Origin: Lewinellaceae bacterium
GTDB lineage: Bacteria; Bacteroidota; Bacteroidia; Chitinophagales; Saprospiraceae
Assembly (NCBI GenBank): GCA_024642625.1
Contig: JAHEAU010000003.1
Coordinates: 1-39,816, forward strand
Direction of reading: 5' to 3'
DNA length: 39,816 bases
Under the pieces are notes generated by a model, which was not told the origin of the DNA, did not search any database, and saw only the letters and a list, made by a program, of their open reading frames with translations. A program made the translations under genes and the position numbers. Numbering within the stretch: position 1 is the stretch's first letter; each line of letters opens with the position of its first letter. Positions 10,683-19,478 of this stretch are shown here, piece after piece.

Positions 10683-11168
10683 TTAGTCGTTTTTAACTTT
10701 CTTGGCAGTTGGTGCAATAGAGGCACTTGTACCCTTTGCAGCCTTGCCTGCGCAGCATGACTTTCCTTTTTTGGATCCTGCACAGCTTTTCTCGTCCTTA
10801 CCAGAAGTAGCAGTTGCAGATGCACCCTTAGAAGAACAGCAGCTCTTTGCTCCTTTTTCGTTCATTTCTGAAGGTGAGGCATTAACGAATTGACTTGTAG
10901 CAGCATCATAAGAAACAGCTTCGTATGAAACCTTTCCACTTTTCTGACAAACATCTTTCCGATAGTAAGAGACCTTTCCAGAGGTCTCACAAACCCGGCG
11001 CTCGATAGATTCATCCAGAGATGCAGCTTGAGCTATGGCCTCATCTGAAGCATCTGTGTTAACTGAAGTTGATGCAGCAGAGTGGCCTGTGCAGTTATGT
11101 TTGGTGGATTGTGCATGAATTGTCAATGCCGCTGGAACCAAAAGCAAAAGCAAAAGTAATTTTTTCAT
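10683..11168 (-). CDS. Small secreted Cys/Lys/Ser-rich protein, function unknown
   Basis: I do not recognise a family. Starting at ATG 11168 (MKKLLLLLLLVPAALTIHAQ, a clear signal peptide; the longer track start overlaps the promoter), the mature protein has about 140 residues of low complexity, rich in Ser, Ala, Lys and Cys. It contains a near-duplicated unit, CETSGKVSYYRKDV and CQKSGKVSYEAVSY, then paired-Cys blocks (KSCCSSKG, KSCAGSKKGKSCCAG) in a lysine-rich tail. Paired cysteines in an exported protein could bind metal or form disulfides; this is inference. A consensus promoter and a strong terminator make it a single-gene unit. It is a real gene by signal peptide and context, with no functional call. 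Confidence 0.8.
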   Translation of the reverse strand: MKKLLLLLLLVPAALTIHAQSTKHNCTGHSAASTSVNTDASDEAIAQAASLDESIERRVCETSGKVSYYRKDVCQKSGKVSYEAVSYDAATSQFVNASPSEMNEKGAKSCCSSKGASATATSGKDEKSCAGSKKGKSCCAGKAAKGTSASIAPTAKKVKND

Positions 11169-11195
11169 GTTCGAAGCTTTAATGTGAATTGAATT

Positions 11196-11226
11196 CAAAA
11201 ATAAGTTTTCTTTCATCAATGAACAA
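11196..11226 (-). promoter_or_regulatory. Promoter of the cysteine-rich secreted protein
   Basis: Read on the minus strand, TTG (11226-11224), a 20-base spacer, then TATTTTTG (11203-11196), an exact TAnnTTTG match. The predicted start near 11190 gives a leader of about 20 bases to the ATG at 11168, and rules out the track start at 11219. Confidence 0.6.
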
Positions 11227-11372: not shown

Positions 11373-11795
11373 ATGAAGCCGTTCCTATTCGTATTTTCAA
11401 TTTGTTGTTTACATGCCTGTCATTCGACACAATATAGTGCCGATCAATTTCCAGAAAAGCAGTTGACTTTTGGTTCTGGTGGTGGGTTCAGTGGGATTGA
11501 ATCCACATATACCTTATTGGAAAATGGCCAATTCTGGATACAAAACGGACCCGGTGCACCTGCTTCACCTTTGCCCTCAATTGCCAGGTCAAAAGCAGAA
11601 CAATTTTTTATCGCTGCCGAAGAGAAACTCTTTGGAGAAGTTGCATTGAACCCACTTGGCAATACCTATCGATTTGTTGGTTATCAAACAGGTAGTCGCC
11701 ATTCGCGGATTACATGGACGGGTGAAAGGCCAACCGTTGATCCTCGCATCGCCGCCCTTATTGATGATCTATACCAACTCATTCCCCAAAAGTAA
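11373..11795 (+). CDS. Small lipoprotein resembling emfourin, an M4 protease inhibitor
   Basis: The start at 11373 gives 140 residues: MKPFLFVFSICCLHACHSTQ, a lipoprotein signal peptide with lipobox LHAC (Cys near residue 16). The mature part opens LTFGSGGGFSGIESTYTLL, close to the SGGFAGI-type start I associate with emfourin (M4in). It continues with a helix ending in FF (SKAEQFFIAAEEKLF), the strand TYRFVGYQ, and the tail DPRIAALIDDLYQLI, in the same order as that family. Emfourin is known as a protein inhibitor encoded beside the M4 protease protealysin; here the next gene, 9 bases away, is an M4 protease. Inhibitor function is therefore a good hypothesis, made from motif order and context only. 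The alternative is an uncharacterised lipoprotein. Lipid anchoring is unusual for this family as I know it. Confidence 0.65.
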   Translation: MKPFLFVFSICCLHACHSTQYSADQFPEKQLTFGSGGGFSGIESTYTLLENGQFWIQNGPGAPASPLPSIARSKAEQFFIAAEEKLFGEVALNPLGNTYRFVGYQTGSRHSRITWTGERPTVDPRIAALIDDLYQLIPQK

Positions 11796-11804
11796 ATCCT
11801 GATT

Positions 11805-14800
11805 ATGCATAACCTGATTCGTCCTTTGGTTACACTCAGTCTTCTCTTGACTGTGTCAGTGGCATTCTCTCAAATGAAGACTGTTCTTCGTAGTGAAGCT
11901 TCGCCTATCCATGCTAATACACTTGAGCCTGTCACAAGTCCATTTCCGGCTCCTTTAGCTCCTTCAAGTGGATTGTTCGCACCACTCCCCATAATGATGG
12001 ATGGATTATCAGTGCCTTCGTCCTCAGCGATTCGCATCCAAGCCCGTGACGAAAGAGGATTGCCTGTTTGGGCTGAAGTTGCTTTGTCCAATTTGCAGAA
12101 TTTATCCCCTGAAGAGCAGGCATGGTCTGTTCTTGAAAAAATGGCTGGTTCTATGCAGATTCAGGATCCTGGATCAGAGTGGCAATTGCAACGAACTGTC
12201 TTGGATGTAACAACAACTGGATATTTGGTCTTTTATCAGTTTTATCATGATGTGCTTATTGAAGGGTCTGAGTGTCGAATACATATCCTCAATGGTAAGG
12301 CTCACCTCTTTACTGGCAGATATCAACCTACACCATCGGGGCTGATCACAAAAGCAAATATTGAAGAACCACAAGCCAAAGAAATCGCCTCTCTCGCCAT
12401 TCATGCGAGACCAATAGAATTAATTCAGAAATATTTGCCTGCTCTTGAAGATCCGCAGTTGGTCATTCTTGATCATGACCAATCAAACCACCTGGTTTGG
12501 CGATTCAGTCTGATGGCGGATGCCATGCACCGATGGACGGTTTATATAGATGCAATTCAAGGGACTGTTCTCCACAAACGTGAGGAAACATGCAGTTTAT
12601 ACCAACATCAAGAGTTACTGCCGCCAGTATTGGACGGACCTTTTACAGCAAATGCATTTGACCTTAAAGGTGTCAATCGATTGATCAACACATATCAGGT
12701 CGGCAGTACATATTACATGCTTGATGGGAGTCGCTCCATGTTCAAGATTGCTTCTTCCAAATTGCCTGATGAACCTGTTGGTGGCATTTTAACGATCGAT
12801 GCAAAAAATACTTCACCGGCACTGGGGAGCTTTAAGCCTGCGCATATTACCAGTCCAAATAATACCTGGAATCACCCTGCTGGTGTTTCTGCGCACTACA
12901 ATGCGGGTGTTGCTTTTACATATTATCAGCAAACATTTAACCGAAACTCAATCAATGGAGCAGGAGGAAGTATCCTTTCTTTTGTCAATGTAGCAGATGA
13001 TGACGGAGGTGCGATGGACAATGCCTACTGGAATGGTGCAGCGATGTTCTATGGCAATGGTGACAAAGCATTTTTTCCTCTTGCCAGGTCATTGGATGTT
13101 GCTGGTCATGAGATGACTCACGGTGTGATTCAATCTACAGCAAACCTGATGTATGAAAAGGAACCAGGTGCCCTGAATGAATCGTTCGCAGATATTTTTG
13201 CAACCATGATTGATCGGGATGATTGGCAAATTGGTGAAGAAGTTGTCAAAACCAGTACTTTCCCTTCAGGTGCTTTACGTGATTTGAAAGATCCTCATAA
13301 TGGGGGCAGTGGCCTGAGTAGTCCGGGGTGGCAACCTAAACATACAAATGAACAATACACGGGCTCACAGGACAATGGAGGCGTGCATATCAATAGCGGA
13401 ATTCCGAACCATGCCTTTTATCTCTTTGCTTCAAATGCAGGAGTGACGTTGGAACAGGCCGAGCAGGTCTTCTTTCTTGCATTAGACAAGTACTTGGTCA
13501 AATCTTCCAAGTTTCTGGACTTGAGGTATGCCGTTGTTCAATCATGCAAGGATAAATTTGGAGCGGCTACCCCGCTGGTCGCTATAGCTGAAAATGCATT
13601 TAACGCAGTAGGAATTGGTTCAGGAAATTCGGGTGAAGGTACTCCGGATGATTACCAAGACGATATTGATCCGAATCCGGGTGATGACTTCATCTTGTTT
13701 ACAGATGATGCAAAATCAAAGATTTATGTGTCCTTGCCGGATGGTTCGAATATCACCATATTGAGTCAATCGCCTCCGAAAAGTAAACCAAGTATAACAG
13801 ATAATGGTGAGTTGATCGTCTTTATTGGTCAGGATAAAAAGATGCATCTCATCGTGATCGATTGGGCCACAGGTACACCCTCGGAATCCATCATCCAGAA
13901 TCAACCTATTTGGGCAAATGCTGCTATTGCGAAGGATGGATCTCGAATTGCAGCTATCCCGGATGCAGTTTCTCCTCTGATCCAGGTATTTGATTTTGGA
14001 ATAAATGACTGGGAGGAATTTAACTTGTATAATCCGACTTTTTCAGAAGGGGTTGTCACATCTGAGGTCCAGTATGCAGATGCCATTGAGTTTGATCATT
14101 CTGGTAATTATCTTGTCTATGATGCATACAATCAGGTCACCTATGACAATGGTAGTGAATATACCTATTGGGATATCGGGTTCTTGGAGGTCTGGAATCC
14201 GCAAACCAATTTCTTTTCTGCAGGAAATGTATTCAAGCTGTTTACCAGTATTCCGGATCTGAGTGCAGTGGGAAATCCGACATTTGCCAAGAATTCAGAA
14301 TATGTTCTTGCATTTGATTACTTTGATGGACAAGCGAAATCATTTTCCATCTTGGGGGCCAACCTGGAAAGTGGGGATGTCGGGTTGATCTATGAAAATA
14401 CAGTGCTGGGCTATCCAAATTATAGTGTATTTGACGACAAATTGATTTTTGATGCGGAAGCAGGGAATTTTCTGGATCCGGTTCTGGCACGCATTGATCT
14501 CAATGCCGATAAAATCACTGGAATAGCTAGTACTGCCGTCGTGCTTGTCGATGGAGGTGCACGAGGTGCTTGGTTTGCAAATGGGGATCGACCGTTGACA
14601 GGTTTAGAGCCAAGTTCTGGTTCGCAGAATATTTCTGTGGATCCCAATCCTGGAATCCAGGGTTTCAATCTGCGTGGCGTTCCGGATCAGTCTACAGTCA
14701 GGGTTTATTCAAGCTTAGGCCTTTTAGTCAAAGAAATGACGAATTGGGTTTCGGGCACATATGTGGATATGAAAGATTTAAACCCTGGTATGTACTGGGT

Positions 14801-14855
14801 TGTAGCAACCCACAATCAGGGACAAAGTCGGGCTGCCTGGATTAAAACCAATTGA
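11805..14855 (+). CDS. Thermolysin-like (M4) metalloprotease, T9SS-secreted
   Basis: A 1016-residue secreted zinc endopeptidase. In order: signal peptide (1-22, ending AFSQ); FTP/PepSY-type propeptide (about 70-265); M4 catalytic domain (about 285-605) with HEMTH at 435-439, third ligand Glu459 in ALNESFAD, and the transition-state His528 in NGGVHINSGIPNHAF; an acidic linker (DDYQDDIDPNPGDD); a region of repeated beta-strands resembling a WD40-like/PD40 propeller (about 628-930); and a T9SS type A sorting domain (about 945-1016, SVDPNPGIQGF through GMYWVVATHNQGQSRAAWI). All catalytic residues are present. It would cross the outer membrane through the T9SS, whose PorP/PorE-like parts lie just downstream. 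It sits 9 bases behind the emfourin-like gene, apparently co-transcribed. Confidence 0.93.
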   Translation: MHNLIRPLVTLSLLLTVSVAFSQMKTVLRSEASPIHANTLEPVTSPFPAPLAPSSGLFAPLPIMMDGLSVPSSSAIRIQARDERGLPVWAEVALSNLQNLSPEEQAWSVLEKMAGSMQIQDPGSEWQLQRTVLDVTTTGYLVFYQFYHDVLIEGSECRIHILNGKAHLFTGRYQPTPSGLITKANIEEPQAKEIASLAIHARPIELIQKYLPALEDPQLVILDHDQSNHLVWRFSLMADAMHRWTVYIDAIQGTVLHKREETCSLYQHQELLPPVLDGPFTANAFDLKGVNRLINTYQVGSTYYMLDGSRSMFKIASSKLPDEPVGGILTIDAKNTSPALGSFKPAHITSPNNTWNHPAGVSAHYNAGVAFTYYQQTFNRNSINGAGGSILSFVNVADDDGGAMDNAYWNGAAMFYGNGDKAFFPLARSLDVAGHEMTHGVIQSTANLMYEKEPGALNESFADIFATMIDRDDWQIGEEVVKTSTFPSGALRDLKDPHNGGSGLSSPGWQPKHTNEQYTGSQDNGGVHINSGIPNHAFYLFASNAGVTLEQAEQVFFLALDKYLVKSSKFLDLRYAVVQSCKDKFGAATPLVAIAENAFNAVGIGSGNSGEGTPDDYQDDIDPNPGDDFILFTDDAKSKIYVSLPDGSNITILSQSPPKSKPSITDNGELIVFIGQDKKMHLIVIDWATGTPSESIIQNQPIWANAAIAKDGSRIAAIPDAVSPLIQVFDFGINDWEEFNLYNPTFSEGVVTSEVQYADAIEFDHSGNYLVYDAYNQVTYDNGSEYTYWDIGFLEVWNPQTNFFSAGNVFKLFTSIPDLSAVGNPTFAKNSEYVLAFDYFDGQAKSFSILGANLESGDVGLIYENTVLGYPNYSVFDDKLIFDAEAGNFLDPVLARIDLNADKITGIASTAVVLVDGGARGAWFANGDRPLTGLEPSSGSQNISVDPNPGIQGFNLRGVPDQSTVRVYSSLGLLVKEMTNWVSGTYVDMKDLNPGMYWVVATHNQGQSRAAWIKTN

Positions 14856-14919: not shown

Positions 14920-15915
14920 ATGACGAAAATCCTGATCATACGATTTAGTTCGATTGGCGATATCGTGTTGACAACGCCGGTCATCCGATGTGTTCATCGC
15001 CAGATGAATGCGGAGGTGCATGTCTTGACAAAACAGGCGTTTACCCCAATTCTGGCAGAGAACCCGTACGTCAATAAGGTACACAGTCTGGAGGTGAACT
15101 TGTCAGACGTGATTCAGGAATTACAACGCGAGAAGTTTGATTTGGTGATTGATTTGCACAAAAATCTTCGATCTCGTCAGGTAAGGAGGGCCTTGGATTG
15201 CCCTGGTGTTACATTTGATAAATTGAACCTTCAAAAATGGCTTCTGACCGTCTTCAAAGTCGATCGGTTGCCGCGGAAGCATTTGGTAGATCGATATTTT
15301 GAAGCGATTGCTCGGTTTGGCGTGAAGAATGATGGTGCTGGATTGGATTATTTTATTTCTACCTCCGATCAGGTTGATCCGACGCAATGGGTAAATGGTC
15401 CTTATCTGGTTTTGGTACTTGGAGCGGCACACACCACAAAGCAGATCCCAATAGGTAAGTTGATTGCCATTGTGGAAGAAAATGAGCAACCTGTTTTACT
15501 AGTGGGAGGGCCAGGGGAAAAAGCGATAGGAGACCAGGTTGTTCTCTCCGCTAAGAGCAAGAAACAAGTGTTCAACCTAGCAGGTCAACTTTCATTGGGT
15601 GGCTCCGCGGATGTAATCCGTCAAGCTGCCGCTGTGATTACCCCGGATACCGGGATGATGCATATTGCTGCCGCCTTCCACCGACCTATTGTCAGTGTAT
15701 GGGGAAACACAGTACCAGAATTTGGGATGTATCCTTATTTCCCTATTGGGAAGAGTCGGGAAAAGACAATTCAAGTTGAGGGTTTGGCGTGCCGACCATG
15801 TTCCAAAATTGGTTACGATCAATGTCCGAAAGGGCATTTTCAGTGTATGGAGCAGCAATCTGCAAAGTTGATTGTTCACGCTGTCTTGGAATTATCAGAC
15901 ATCAACAATAAATAG
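14920..15915 (+). CDS. Glycosyltransferase family 9 (heptosyltransferase-like)
   Basis: GT9 enzymes transfer heptose or related sugars from ADP-activated donors onto lipid A-core during lipopolysaccharide assembly, on the cytoplasmic face. The 331-residue protein has the N-terminal MTKILIIRFSSIGDIVLTTPVIR signature, then DLVIDLHKNLRSR. The C-terminal donor-binding region shows AAVITPDTGMMHIAAAF followed by RPIVSVWGNTVPE, where the Asp-Thr-Gly loop and downstream segment are the family hallmark. The exact sugar and acceptor cannot be assigned. It starts 64 bases after the M4 protease gene and is followed by porP. Confidence 0.92.
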   Translation: MTKILIIRFSSIGDIVLTTPVIRCVHRQMNAEVHVLTKQAFTPILAENPYVNKVHSLEVNLSDVIQELQREKFDLVIDLHKNLRSRQVRRALDCPGVTFDKLNLQKWLLTVFKVDRLPRKHLVDRYFEAIARFGVKNDGAGLDYFISTSDQVDPTQWVNGPYLVLVLGAAHTTKQIPIGKLIAIVEENEQPVLLVGGPGEKAIGDQVVLSAKSKKQVFNLAGQLSLGGSADVIRQAAAVITPDTGMMHIAAAFHRPIVSVWGNTVPEFGMYPYFPIGKSREKTIQVEGLACRPCSKIGYDQCPKGHFQCMEQQSAKLIVHAVLELSDINNK

Positions 15916-15934
15916 GTAAGCCGAGGTAAGTTGA

Positions 15935-15965
15935 TTTGTGGTTTGGTTTGAAACCGCTATATTTC
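15935..15965 (+). promoter_or_regulatory. Candidate promoter of porP (TTTG-N19-TATATTTC)
   Basis: TTTG at 15935-15938 and TATATTTC at 15958-15965 have the right 19-base spacing; the -7 box has one mismatch (C for the final G). The start would lie 15-20 bases before the ATG at 15987. Confidence 0.4.
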
Positions 15966-15986
15966 GGCATCTAATCGATCTGTCAT

Positions 15987-17003
15987 ATGTTGAAGAAATT
16001 ACTCGTGAGTGCTATACTGGGGTTGGGAGTGTGGGTATTGCCTGCCCAGGATGTCCACTTTACTCAGTTTACGATGTCTCCACTAATGTTAAACCCAGCG
16101 AATACTGGGGCTTTTTTCGGTTCTTACCGGATAGGTGGAATTTATCGTGATCAATGGGCACATTTGAGTAATTCCTTCCAGACACCGGCATTGTATGTCG
16201 ATGCTCCGGTCATCCGCGGATTTCGAAAAAATGATTGGGTTGGTGTAGGTGTCAACTATTTTCAGGATAAAGCAGGTATTGCCGGATTGCAATTCAGTGG
16301 ATTACAGATGTCAGGTGCATATCATTTGTCACTAGACAAAAAGCGCAAGAGTGTGCTGACATTTGGTTTTGGTGGTGGTAGTATGTCTCGACGAATCGAT
16401 ATTACCAGTGACAAGATCAAATTATATGATGAGTTGGAAGATGCCTCTGGAATGACCATCAGTCAGGACCGGATGAACGTACAGAAAAAGACAGACTATA
16501 TCGATCTCCATGGGGGATTGTTGTTTACTCAAAAGTTGAAAAGTGGCAAAGCATTGCATATCGGTATAGCACTCAATCACCTCAACAAGCCGGATTATAA
16601 GCTCAGCGGTGGTAATGGTAAAGCCGATAAGCTGCCAATGCGTCTTTCAGGTTCTGCAGATATGGAGTTTGCACTGAATGACAAATGGTCGTTGACGCCA
16701 GCAGTTCTAGTTCAGAATATGACCAATATTCAGGAGATACAGGCTCAGGCATTGGCAGGATATCTCTTCAATGCTGAGAAGGAGATCACTCTCTTGGGCG
16801 GTCTGGGATATCGATTGGGTGATGCTATTCCTATCATTGTTGGTGCTCAATGGAAGTCATTGCGAGTCGGTGTGAGCTGGGATTACAACACTTCCGACGT
16901 TACACCGAATGGGAATGGAGGTTTTGAGATTGCAGCCTCATATATTGGCAGGATTCTCAAGAAGCCAAGTGTTAAACGGGTGATCATTTGCCCACGTTAT
17001 TAA
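15987..17003 (+). CDS. PorP/SprF family outer-membrane protein of the T9SS
   Basis: The 338-residue beta-barrel protein has a signal peptide (MLKKLLVSAILGLGVWVLPAQ) and the family's opening motif DVHFTQFTMSPLMLNPANTG, then SYRIGGIYRDQW. The body alternates short strands and glycine-rich turns (KSVLTFGFGGGSMSRR, KALHIGIALNHLNKPDY, ITLLGGLGYRLGDAIPII), as in PorP/SprF. PorP-type proteins sit in the outer membrane and, with PorE, link T9SS components to the cell envelope; paralogues also anchor specific secreted proteins such as SprB-type adhesins. The next gene, 30 bases on, is the PorE-like partner, a usual pairing. Confidence 0.93.
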   Translation: MLKKLLVSAILGLGVWVLPAQDVHFTQFTMSPLMLNPANTGAFFGSYRIGGIYRDQWAHLSNSFQTPALYVDAPVIRGFRKNDWVGVGVNYFQDKAGIAGLQFSGLQMSGAYHLSLDKKRKSVLTFGFGGGSMSRRIDITSDKIKLYDELEDASGMTISQDRMNVQKKTDYIDLHGGLLFTQKLKSGKALHIGIALNHLNKPDYKLSGGNGKADKLPMRLSGSADMEFALNDKWSLTPAVLVQNMTNIQEIQAQALAGYLFNAEKEITLLGGLGYRLGDAIPIIVGAQWKSLRVGVSWDYNTSDVTPNGNGGFEIAASYIGRILKKPSVKRVIICPRY

Positions 17004-17033
17004 TTCATCGAATCACATTAATTCTCCCTTTAT

Positions 17034-19478
17034 ATGATCATCAGATCTATTGTGGTTGCCAGCTTGATCTTCGCATTTATCCCTAACGGATGGTGCCAGC
17101 CTGCGAATGAACCTACAGCTGAGGCCAATCTCAAGTTTGCACTTGAATTGTATGAGCAGCAGGATTACAGTAATGCACGCGAGAAACTGGAAAAAGCCTA
17201 TGAAGATTTCAAATCGAACGAGGTGGCTTGGAAATTGGCCATGTCCCATTATTACAGCAGGGATTATCGACGAGCTGAAATGGCATTCAACCGAATAAAT
17301 CGGCGTGATAAAACCGATGAATATCCAGAGTCTCAATTGTGGAAGGCCAGGATGATGAAGATGAATGGCAAATATGAAGAGGCTATTGGCGAGTTGAATG
17401 ACGTCGTAAAATCAGATGCTGATCCTTATATCAAACAAGCTGCTGCATTGGAACTTCAAGGGGCCAATTTGGCAGTATCCAGTCAGGATCAAGTTCGTAT
17501 GACGATTGATAATGCTGGTAAAGAAGTCAACTACCCTGGAAGTGAAGGCAGTGTATTCATCTCACCTTCAGGCGAAGAGATGTATTATACATCCTATATG
17601 TTGAATGAACCGCTAGTTTTGGGGAAGGATGTGGAGCCGGTTTATTGTAAGGCGATCCGATCTGCTTGGAGTGACGACAAATGGGGCGCGGGAAGTGCTA
17701 TGGATGAAAAGATCAACAGGGAAGAATTCAATGTTGGCAATATCTCTGTAAGTCCAGAGGGGAACCGGCTTTATTTTACCCGGGTCATCATGAAGGTCGA
17801 TAGCATGCAAGAGAGTCGCATCTATGTTTCCAATCGTGAAAGCAGTGGATGGGGACCGGCATATGAATTGACTGGGGTAAATGGTGATTGGATTGCCAAG
17901 CAACCATGTGTTGGTGAACTCTTTGGATCAGAAGTCTTGTATTTCGTCTCCAATAAAGAGGGTGGACATGGTGGATTTGACATCTATTATGCAAAGAAAA
18001 CAGGTGAAACCAGCTATGCTGATCCAGTTAATCTTGGTGATGTGATCAATGGTCCTGGTGATGAGATCACGCCATTTTATCGGGAAGGTCGCCTCTATTA
18101 TAGCACGACTTCCTTGCCAAGTTTTGGTGGCTTTGATATTTATTCCACTGATTGGAATGGATCCGTTTGGAGTACACCTGCCAACCTTGGAAAAGGATTC
18201 AATTCATCAGTTGATGATTTTGGTTTTTCTGTTGATGCGACAGGGTATAAAGGCGCATTATTGTCTAACCGTCCGGAAGGAAAGTCATTGGATAGTCGGA
18301 CATGCTGTGATGATATTTACACGTTTCAGATTTCTCCGATCAAACTGGATTTGCTTGCCAGTGTGAAAGACGGAAAAGTAGACGGTCTGCTGCGAGGCGT
18401 GAACGTGCAACTTATTGAGATGACCGGAGACAAAATGGGCATTACAATGAATGCAGCGACTGGGGAAAAAGGTGCTGCTGCTTTCCAATTGGGATTGGAT
18501 AAAGCCTATCGGATTATCGCGTCTGCAGATGGCTATGTTGGTGATACTTTGGATTTCAATACAGCGAGCATCAAGGAAGACATGACCTTCCAAAAGACCT
18601 TGGTTATGATGCCGATTCCTAAGGAGCCTGAATATGAGGTGTATACTACCGAAGAACCGATTCGTCTGAACAGCATCTATTATGATTATGATGATGACAA
18701 GATATTACCTGAATCGGAACCGGATCTTCAACTGTTATTAGAACTAATGGCTCAATATAGCGATATGGTCATTGAGTTGTCCTCTCATACAGATGCTCGT
18801 GGAGATGATACATACAACCAAAAGTTATCTCAGCGACGCGCCCAATCCGCAACAAACTGGCTACTTGAAAAGGGCGTTGATCCTGTTCGCATTCAACCTG
18901 TTGGATATGGTGAAACACAGATTCTGAACCAATGCACGAATGGAGTCGAATGTACAGATAATGAGCACCGGTTTAACCGACGGACTGAGTTCAAGATCAT
19001 ATCTGGACCTACTTCAATCAAAATCGAGAAAACTCGACTCAAGAGTTTACAAGATGAAGAAGTACCTGCATCCAGGCCCAATAATAACCGAAATCGCCGT
19101 CGTGGAGGAGGAGGTGACTCTGTCGCTACCCAACCTTATCCACCCCAGCCGGTCTTGATATGGGAGAAGGATGGCGTTCAATTTGGGGAGTTGAAAAAGG
19201 GCGAGCAACGTGATCAAGTATTTACGTTTACCAATACAAGTACGAAAAGTGTAACCATTGAAATCTGCACTGCATGTGATTGCATGACGCTTGATTGGAC
19301 AACACTACCTGTCAAGCCCGGACAAAAAGGAACGGTAAAGGCACATTTTGATACAAGTAAAAAAGAGGTTGGTGACATCGTAAATGATTTTATCAATGTG
19401 ATCCTGGAAGAACGTGATCCTGCGACAGGACATCCTGTTGTCTTTGAATTGCATTACCAGGCAGTGATCATCGAATAA
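17034..19478 (+). CDS. PorE-like TPR/PD40/OmpA protein with extra DUF1573 domain
   Basis: The 814-residue periplasmic protein has: signal peptide (1-21, ending GWCQ); TPR helices (about 25-150); a PD40/WD40-like propeller (about 160-430) with blades such as PSGEEMYYTSYM, PEGNRLYFTRVI and REGRLYYSTTSLPSFGGFDIY; a carboxypeptidase-regulatory-like fold (about 440-530); and an OmpA C-terminal peptidoglycan-binding domain (about 545-660, SHTDARGDDTYNQKLSQRRA). This order equals PorE, which ties the T9SS to peptidoglycan. Unusually, it continues through an Arg/Gly linker (RNRRRGGGGDS) into about 105 residues resembling DUF1573 (VQFGELKKGEQRDQVFTFTN, then CTACDC). It directly follows porP. The PorE role is inferred from architecture and neighbour; related OmpA proteins of other secretion loci look alike. 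Confidence 0.88.
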   Translation: MIIRSIVVASLIFAFIPNGWCQPANEPTAEANLKFALELYEQQDYSNAREKLEKAYEDFKSNEVAWKLAMSHYYSRDYRRAEMAFNRINRRDKTDEYPESQLWKARMMKMNGKYEEAIGELNDVVKSDADPYIKQAAALELQGANLAVSSQDQVRMTIDNAGKEVNYPGSEGSVFISPSGEEMYYTSYMLNEPLVLGKDVEPVYCKAIRSAWSDDKWGAGSAMDEKINREEFNVGNISVSPEGNRLYFTRVIMKVDSMQESRIYVSNRESSGWGPAYELTGVNGDWIAKQPCVGELFGSEVLYFVSNKEGGHGGFDIYYAKKTGETSYADPVNLGDVINGPGDEITPFYREGRLYYSTTSLPSFGGFDIYSTDWNGSVWSTPANLGKGFNSSVDDFGFSVDATGYKGALLSNRPEGKSLDSRTCCDDIYTFQISPIKLDLLASVKDGKVDGLLRGVNVQLIEMTGDKMGITMNAATGEKGAAAFQLGLDKAYRIIASADGYVGDTLDFNTASIKEDMTFQKTLVMMPIPKEPEYEVYTTEEPIRLNSIYYDYDDDKILPESEPDLQLLLELMAQYSDMVIELSSHTDARGDDTYNQKLSQRRAQSATNWLLEKGVDPVRIQPVGYGETQILNQCTNGVECTDNEHRFNRRTEFKIISGPTSIKIEKTRLKSLQDEEVPASRPNNNRNRRRGGGGDSVATQPYPPQPVLIWEKDGVQFGELKKGEQRDQVFTFTNTSTKSVTIEICTACDCMTLDWTTLPVKPGQKGTVKAHFDTSKKEVGDIVNDFINVILEERDPATGHPVVFELHYQAVIIE

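What the first reader, a model, noticed from the sequence alone, without database searches (positions are those of the whole stretch)
11373..14855. Lipoprotein resembling the M4 inhibitor emfourin paired with a T9SS-exported M4 protease
Seen: a 140-residue lipoprotein (lipobox LHAC) opens its mature part with FGSGGGFSGIES and keeps the order of helix, YRF strand and C-terminal LIDDLYQLI that I associate with emfourin. Nine bases later an intact thermolysin-like protease (HEMTH, Glu459, His528) with a T9SS sorting domain begins. Known: emfourin is a proteinaceous inhibitor encoded next to the M4 protease protealysin. Inference: because T9SS cargo pauses in the periplasm before export, a membrane-anchored inhibitor there could protect the cell, making a self-protection module tied to the T9SS. 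I know of no description of such a pairing with a lipidated inhibitor.
Basis: partly seen in the sequence, partly recalled or inferred. Interest (0 to 1): 0.7.

Follow-up and report, generated by a model that had tools for sequence, protein, structure and literature searches.

The report
Lipoprotein guarding a T9SS M4 protease
A small membrane-anchored protein is encoded directly in front of a secreted thermolysin-type protease in many Bacteroidota genomes and resembles the known protease inhibitor emfourin, so it probably keeps the enzyme harmless until it has left the cell.

Summary
The pairing is real and conserved, not a one-off. The window lipoprotein has no Pfam or NCBIfam match, but it founds a coherent family with near-invariant G-x-GGF-[TSA]-G, NG, (P)GN and W. 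The family occurs in 115 of 399 genomes of the order and 34 of 396 of the phylum. Of 137 distinct members found by sequence alone, 98 have an M4 protease gene immediately downstream on the same strand. From the protease side, 34 of 49 evaluable genes of this M4 subfamily have the lipoprotein in front. In 25 of 26 linked proteases scanned a T9SS type A sorting domain is present; catalytic residues are invariant. Profile comparison with emfourin gives a full-length collinear score that 0 of 150 column shuffles reach, with the same order of strands and helices. Direct membership is not shown: the window protein has no PF20242 match, and the Asp invariant in emfourins is not conserved here. The lipoprotein lacks a surface-export signal, which points to the periplasm. 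Inhibition was not tested. The claim that such lipidated pairings are undescribed is wrong in kind: potempins of Tannerella forsythia are lipoprotein inhibitors encoded before T9SS proteases. Verdict: new variant of a known kind.

The parts
11373..11795 (+). Lipoprotein, 140 aa, putative M4-protease inhibitor
   Evidence: ORF; family alignment with 126 relatives; AF2 model pLDDT 85.7
11373..11420 (+). Lipoprotein signal peptide MKPFLFVFSICCLHA and acceptor Cys16; residues after the Cys are HSTQY, no acidic surface-export motif
   Evidence: sequence; family statistics of positions +2 to +6; definition of the export signal PMC5080379
11478..11495 (+). GGGFSG loop (residues 36-41) between strands 1 and 2, candidate active-site-inserting loop; matches GGF-x-G of emfourin
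   Evidence: conservation G37/G38 99%, G41 96%, F39 85%; emfourin alignment
11649..11666 (+). NPLGNT loop (residues 93-98) before strand 3; Asn97 conserved in 97%; aligns close to the emfourin loop that carries its invariant Asp
11796..11804 (+). 9-base gap between the two genes
   Evidence: gap distribution in relatives, often a 4-base overlap
11805..14855 (+). M4 (thermolysin-family) metalloprotease precursor, 1016 aa, T9SS cargo
12177..12320 (+). FTP propeptide motif (residues 125-172), weak in this member
   Evidence: Pfam PF07504 E 0.03, below cut-off
12663..13616 (+). Thermolysin catalytic domain (residues 287-604) with HEMTH, Glu459, His528
   Evidence: PF01447, PF02868; invariant residues in 26 proteases
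14643..14846 (+). T9SS type A C-terminal sorting domain (residues 947-1014)
   Evidence: TIGR04183 26.1 bits against cut-off 23; in 25 of 26 linked proteases

Best explanation
The lipoprotein is a dedicated inhibitor (self-protection factor) of the downstream M4 protease. It is translated first from a two-gene operon, exported by Sec, lipidated at Cys16 and kept facing the periplasm. There it caps the zinc cleft of the protease with its GGGF-x-G and PGN loops until the protease leaves through the T9SS, away from its anchored partner. Shown here: gene order and conservation, lipobox, T9SS domain, fold prediction, profile similarity to emfourin, absence of a surface-export signal. Inferred: inhibition, the loops as the binding site, release on secretion.
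For: Family found by sequence alone: 98 of 137 distinct members have M4 directly downstream; 34 of 49 evaluable M4 loci have the lipoprotein upstream. Linkage holds in several classes of the phylum, with the order reversed once. Many pairs overlap by 4 bases. 25 of 26 linked proteases carry T9SS type A domains and intact catalytic residues. Emfourin comparison: hhalign 21-22 against a shuffle maximum of 8-10.5, 0 of 150, for three alignment methods; an earlier 6-sequence set gave 26.0 against a maximum of 10.3; same element order in AF2 models. Where M4 is missing, members sit beside other zinc peptidases, M49 (three confirmed by Pfam, two more by similar sequence start) and M43 (two). Acidic export signal absent: 2 of 125 have two or more acidic residues at +2 to +6. 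Precedents: emfourin inhibits protealysin (PMC9505478); potempins (PMC7296668).
Against: No direct PF20242 match for the window protein. With the redundant emfourin set A7 aligned by default the score fell to 14.0, and at least one of 100 shuffles exceeded it (maximum 15.9). The Asp invariant in emfourins is not conserved. About 28% of members have no adjacent M4, and 15 of 49 proteases have no such lipoprotein. No solved emfourin structure was found for comparison. No inhibition data; complex geometry could not be checked.
Confidence: 0.64

Rival explanations
1. The lipoprotein is a secretion or maturation partner (chaperone, anchor or activator) of the M4 protease rather than an inhibitor: it holds the precursor at the outer membrane and hands it to the T9SS.
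For: Tight linkage to T9SS-dependent M4, lipoprotein gene first, often with overlapping genes. Linkage alone fits a chaperone equally well.
Against: GGF-x-G and profile resemblance to a known M4 inhibitor; members beside M49 enzymes that themselves look like lipoproteins and are not obviously T9SS cargo.
Confidence: 0.18
2. Surface or released immunity factor: the lipoprotein is an inhibitor, but it protects the cell surface against the already secreted protease of itself or of kin, as proposed for emfourin as an immunity protein.
For: Members persist without an adjacent M4, as immunity genes may; some members have an ordinary rather than a lipoprotein signal (L089, L090, L013); potempin precedent (PMC7296668).
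Against: The acidic export signal known from other Bacteroidota is missing in nearly all members; the signal is unverified in this order.
Confidence: 0.12
3. The emfourin resemblance is convergent. The protein belongs to a wider lipoprotein superfamily (with DUF6438) of other function that happens to be fixed beside the protease.
For: DUF6438 profile similarity is as strong as that of emfourin (27.4 against a shuffle maximum of 9.2; 6 of 127 members match PF20033, best E 0.0011). Emfourin against DUF6438 directly is not significant.
Against: Linkage to M4 on both sides of the comparison and the shared GGF-x-G loop would have to be coincidence; a common fold for all three is equally possible.
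Confidence: 0.15

Closest known systems
Emfourin (M4in, PF20242) with protealysin-like M4 proteases
   Same: Small protein encoded beside an M4 protease; GGF-x-G loop after strand 1; order strand-strand-helix-strand-strand-helix; significant profile similarity against shuffles. Cytosolic pairs are present in other Bacteroidota (L031, L041-L044, L194-L205).
   Different: Emfourin has no signal peptide and follows the protease gene; the lipoprotein precedes it, carries an extra two short strands before the first helix, and lacks the Asp invariant in emfourins. No direct PF20242 match for the window protein.
Potempins of Tannerella forsythia with KLIKK proteases
   Same: Small lipoproteins encoded directly upstream of T9SS proteases and reported to inhibit the co-expressed protease (PMC7296668; PMC4404884).
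   Different: The lipoprotein genes before the six KLIKK proteases share no significant sequence similarity with each other (PMC4404884), whereas this is one sequence family tied mainly to one M4 subfamily across a phylum. Direct sequence comparison with potempins was not made.
DUF6438 (PF20033)
   Same: Profile similarity over the full length (124 columns, score 27.4 against a shuffle maximum of 9.2); several are lipoprotein-like; found in the same genomes.
   Different: CFGTCP motif instead of GGGFTG; no known function; no protease linkage tested.
Mago nashi (exon junction complex core)
   Same: All nine best Foldseek matches of the lipoprotein model are Mago nashi (E 6.2e-5 to 1.2e-3, TM 0.55-0.61 by query length).
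   Different: No sequence similarity by hhalign (score 1.5); eukaryotic RNA-processing protein. Resemblance of fold only.

Membership tests
Emfourin (PF20242) | Match to the curated profile | tested here: not met
   Window protein: no match at E<=1; G000: no match at E<=1; 1 of 127 relatives at E 0.01
Emfourin (PF20242) | Profile-profile similarity over the whole domain | tested here: met
   hhalign score 21-22, 0 of 150 column shuffles reach it; weaker with the redundant set A7
Emfourin (PF20242) | GGF-x-G loop after strand 1 | tested here: met
   G37/G38 99%, F39 85%, G41 96% of 127; invariant GGF-x-G in A7
Emfourin (PF20242) | Conserved Asp of the second loop, recalled from the literature as a zinc ligand | tested here: not met
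   D48 invariant in A7; the corresponding loop here is (P)GN, Asn97 97%
Emfourin (PF20242) | Gene adjacent to an M4 protease gene | tested here: met
   98 of 137; 34 of 49 from the protease side
Emfourin (PF20242) | Inhibits the cognate M4 protease | not testable with these tools
   needs purified proteins
Potempin-like lipoprotein inhibitor of T9SS proteases | Lipoprotein signal | tested here: met
   LHAC, Cys16; Cys at least 90% conserved in A1
Potempin-like lipoprotein inhibitor of T9SS proteases | Gene directly upstream of a T9SS-exported protease | tested here: met
Potempin-like lipoprotein inhibitor of T9SS proteases | Homology to a known potempin | not tested
   No potempin sequence was compared directly; no potempin appears among PDB hits by sequence or in the 50 best fold matches
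M4 protease | HExxH, Glu and catalytic His | tested here: met
   H435 E436 H439 E459 H528 invariant

The most novel reading that the evidence does not exclude
A widespread superfamily of envelope lipoproteins with a Mago-nashi-like fold, including this family and DUF6438 and with emfourin as a reduced cytosolic branch, serves Bacteroidota as modular inhibitors of several zinc peptidase families (M4 mainly, also M49 and M43), so that cargo waiting in the periplasm stays inactive.
Probability: 0.2. Interest if true: 0.78.

Novelty: new variant of a known kind. Interest (0 to 1): 0.58.

Why it matters
How Bacteroidota avoid digestion by their own T9SS proteases while these wait in the periplasm has little general explanation; potempins are known from T. 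forsythia. A single, easily recognised, phylum-wide lipoprotein family beside M4 proteases makes the question directly testable in named cultured strains such as Lewinella cohaerens DSM 23179, Maribacter halichondriae Hal144 and Spirosoma species. It also gives unannotated proteins a concrete function to test, and links emfourin, DUF6438 and a eukaryotic-like fold.

Tried and rejected
Single-protein scan of genome contigs and viral contigs: nothing. Pattern search from alignments A3 and A4: too divergent. Emfourins from plasmids: one Mesorhizobium hit. PDB by sequence for emfourin or the lipoprotein: nothing. A single-chain read-through model of protease plus inhibitor (L193) was planned and dropped: inhibitor rows misaligned unless very few proteases were used, and the model tool returns no coordinates. 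Membership in Mago nashi by sequence: rejected. Chance adjacency: rejected against the M4 density. Viral structure library: no match at E<=0.001.

Full report
Observation. The lipoprotein (11373-11795) and the M4 protease (11805-14855) are as described. The protease has the M4 catalytic and helical domains and a T9SS type A sorting domain above the curated cut-off. One correction: the GGGFSG motif lies at residues 36-41, after a linker of about 16 residues, not at the very start of the mature part. The start at 11373 rather than the upstream GTG is supported by the alignment of the lipobox Cys across relatives and by the same-genus relative.

A real family. The window protein matches nothing in Pfam or NCBIfam (one chance-level Pfam hit at E 0.21), but the genome search finds relatives in 35 of 150 genomes of the order. 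With a profile it finds them in 115 of 399 genomes of the order and 34 of 396 of the phylum, including other classes. Conserved features are G-x-GGF-[TSA]-G, NG, (P)GN and a Trp: G37 and G38 99%, G52 99%, N97 97%, W115 98% of 127 sequences.

Linkage. Members were collected by sequence alone. Of 137 distinct ones, 98 have an M4 gene directly downstream on the same strand, typically within about 60 nt and often with a 4-base overlap; one has it upstream. L160 also has M4 downstream but fell just outside the cut-off because its ORF was extended upstream. From the protease side, 55 loci of this M4 subfamily with organism names were fetched; six lie at contig edges, 34 of the other 49 have the lipoprotein upstream and 15 do not. 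The fetched relatives are mostly Saprospiraceae, with Maribacter, Spirosoma, Rudanella, a Melioribacteraceae MAG and others. In a sample of 26 linked proteases the catalytic residues are invariant and 25 carry TIGR04183.

Exceptions are informative. Where M4 is absent, the lipoprotein is followed by an M49 dipeptidyl-peptidase III gene in L119, L138 and L155 (Pfam), and by a protein with the same characteristic start in L115 and L157 (not scanned). In L170 and L190 an M43 pappalysin-type gene lies upstream. In L175, L182 and L184 the glycosyltransferase neighbour of the window is kept while the protease is missing. Elsewhere no peptidase is adjacent, for instance next to what looks like elongation factor P (L097, L100, L109, L113, named from sequence only) and in the GSQGG subgroup (L021, L025, L026).

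Relation to emfourin. True emfourins occur in other Bacteroidota directly after cytosolic M4 proteases. Compared with the 127-member lipoprotein alignment, a dereplicated set of ten emfourins scores 21.4-22.0 by hhalign, collinear over the full domain; none of 150 column shuffles reaches it (maximum 8.3-10.5) for three alignment methods. Windows of the protease reach 8.1 and unrelated neighbour families 2.9; a set of DUF6438 proteins among the neighbours reached 17.7. With a redundant emfourin set and default alignment the score was only 14.0 and at least one of 100 shuffles exceeded it, so the result depends on the alignment. One of 127 members matches PF20242 at E 0.01. The AF2 models have the same element order: lipoprotein E14-22, E29-34, (E39-43, E50-52), H57-71, E83-91, E94-100, H109-119 (pLDDT 85.7); emfourin E2-9, E16-21, H26-37, E50-57, E62-68, H74-87 (pLDDT 77). 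The loop after strand 1 (GGF-x-G) is shared. The Asp invariant in emfourins (D48 in A7), which I recall from the emfourin structure paper as the zinc ligand (not held here), is replaced by a (P)GN loop. So it resembles emfourin and may share ancestry, but strict membership is not shown.

Other relatives. DUF6438 is as similar as emfourin (27.4 against a shuffle maximum of 9.2; six members match it weakly). Foldseek against the PDB gives Mago nashi for the nine best matches (E 6.2e-5 to 1.2e-3), with no sequence similarity; I treat this as fold resemblance only. The emfourin model has no confident match.

Localisation. 111 of 125 members have a basic residue among positions +2 to +6, and only two have two or more acidic ones. 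The known surface-export signal of Capnocytophaga, Bacteroides and Flavobacterium is acidic (PMC5080379). A periplasm-facing lipoprotein is therefore likely, though the signal is unverified in this order. Some members (L089, L090, L013) appear to have an ordinary signal peptide instead.

Mechanism. Most likely an inhibitor that keeps T9SS-bound M4 protease inactive in the periplasm. Shown: gene order, conservation, T9SS domain, predicted fold, profile similarity. Inferred: co-transcription, inhibition, loop insertion, release on secretion. The idea has precedents: emfourin inhibits protealysin, and deletion of emfourin alone has phenotypes in Serratia (PMC9505478); potempins are lipoproteins encoded before T9SS KLIKK proteases and reported to inhibit them (PMC7296668, PMC4404884).

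Noticed in passing
L119:2930-4999, L138:2907-4994, L155:3003-5078 (also L115, L157 by sequence start): Members without M4 are followed by an M49 dipeptidyl-peptidase III that looks like a lipoprotein, suggesting the lipoprotein family pairs with more than one zinc peptidase family.
   Followed up: partly
L170:4689-5903 (-), L190:5463-6692 (-): M43 pappalysin-type peptidase upstream of the lipoprotein; in L190 a DUF6438-like gene lies between them.
   Followed up: partly
window 11418-11792 (model mbd1a038ec026): Predicted fold matches Mago nashi of the eukaryotic exon junction complex best in the PDB, without sequence similarity.
   Followed up: partly
window 14920-19478: Glycosyltransferase 9, PorP/SprF and an OmpA-domain protein follow the protease; in L175, L182 and L184 the lipoprotein and a glycosyltransferase-like gene are kept but the protease is missing.
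   Followed up: partly
L193:4165-7023 (-): The only reversed order seen: M4 protease first, then two stop codons and the lipoprotein in the same frame.
   Followed up: partly
G319: L043/L194 and L087/L189: One genome holds both a cytosolic emfourin-protealysin pair and a member of the lipoprotein family, the latter near beta-propeller proteins and without M4.
   Followed up: partly
window 10683-11219 (-); L030:913-1371 (-): A cysteine-rich secreted protein recurs as divergent neighbour upstream of the pair; similar proteins appear in many of the fetched loci.
   Followed up: no
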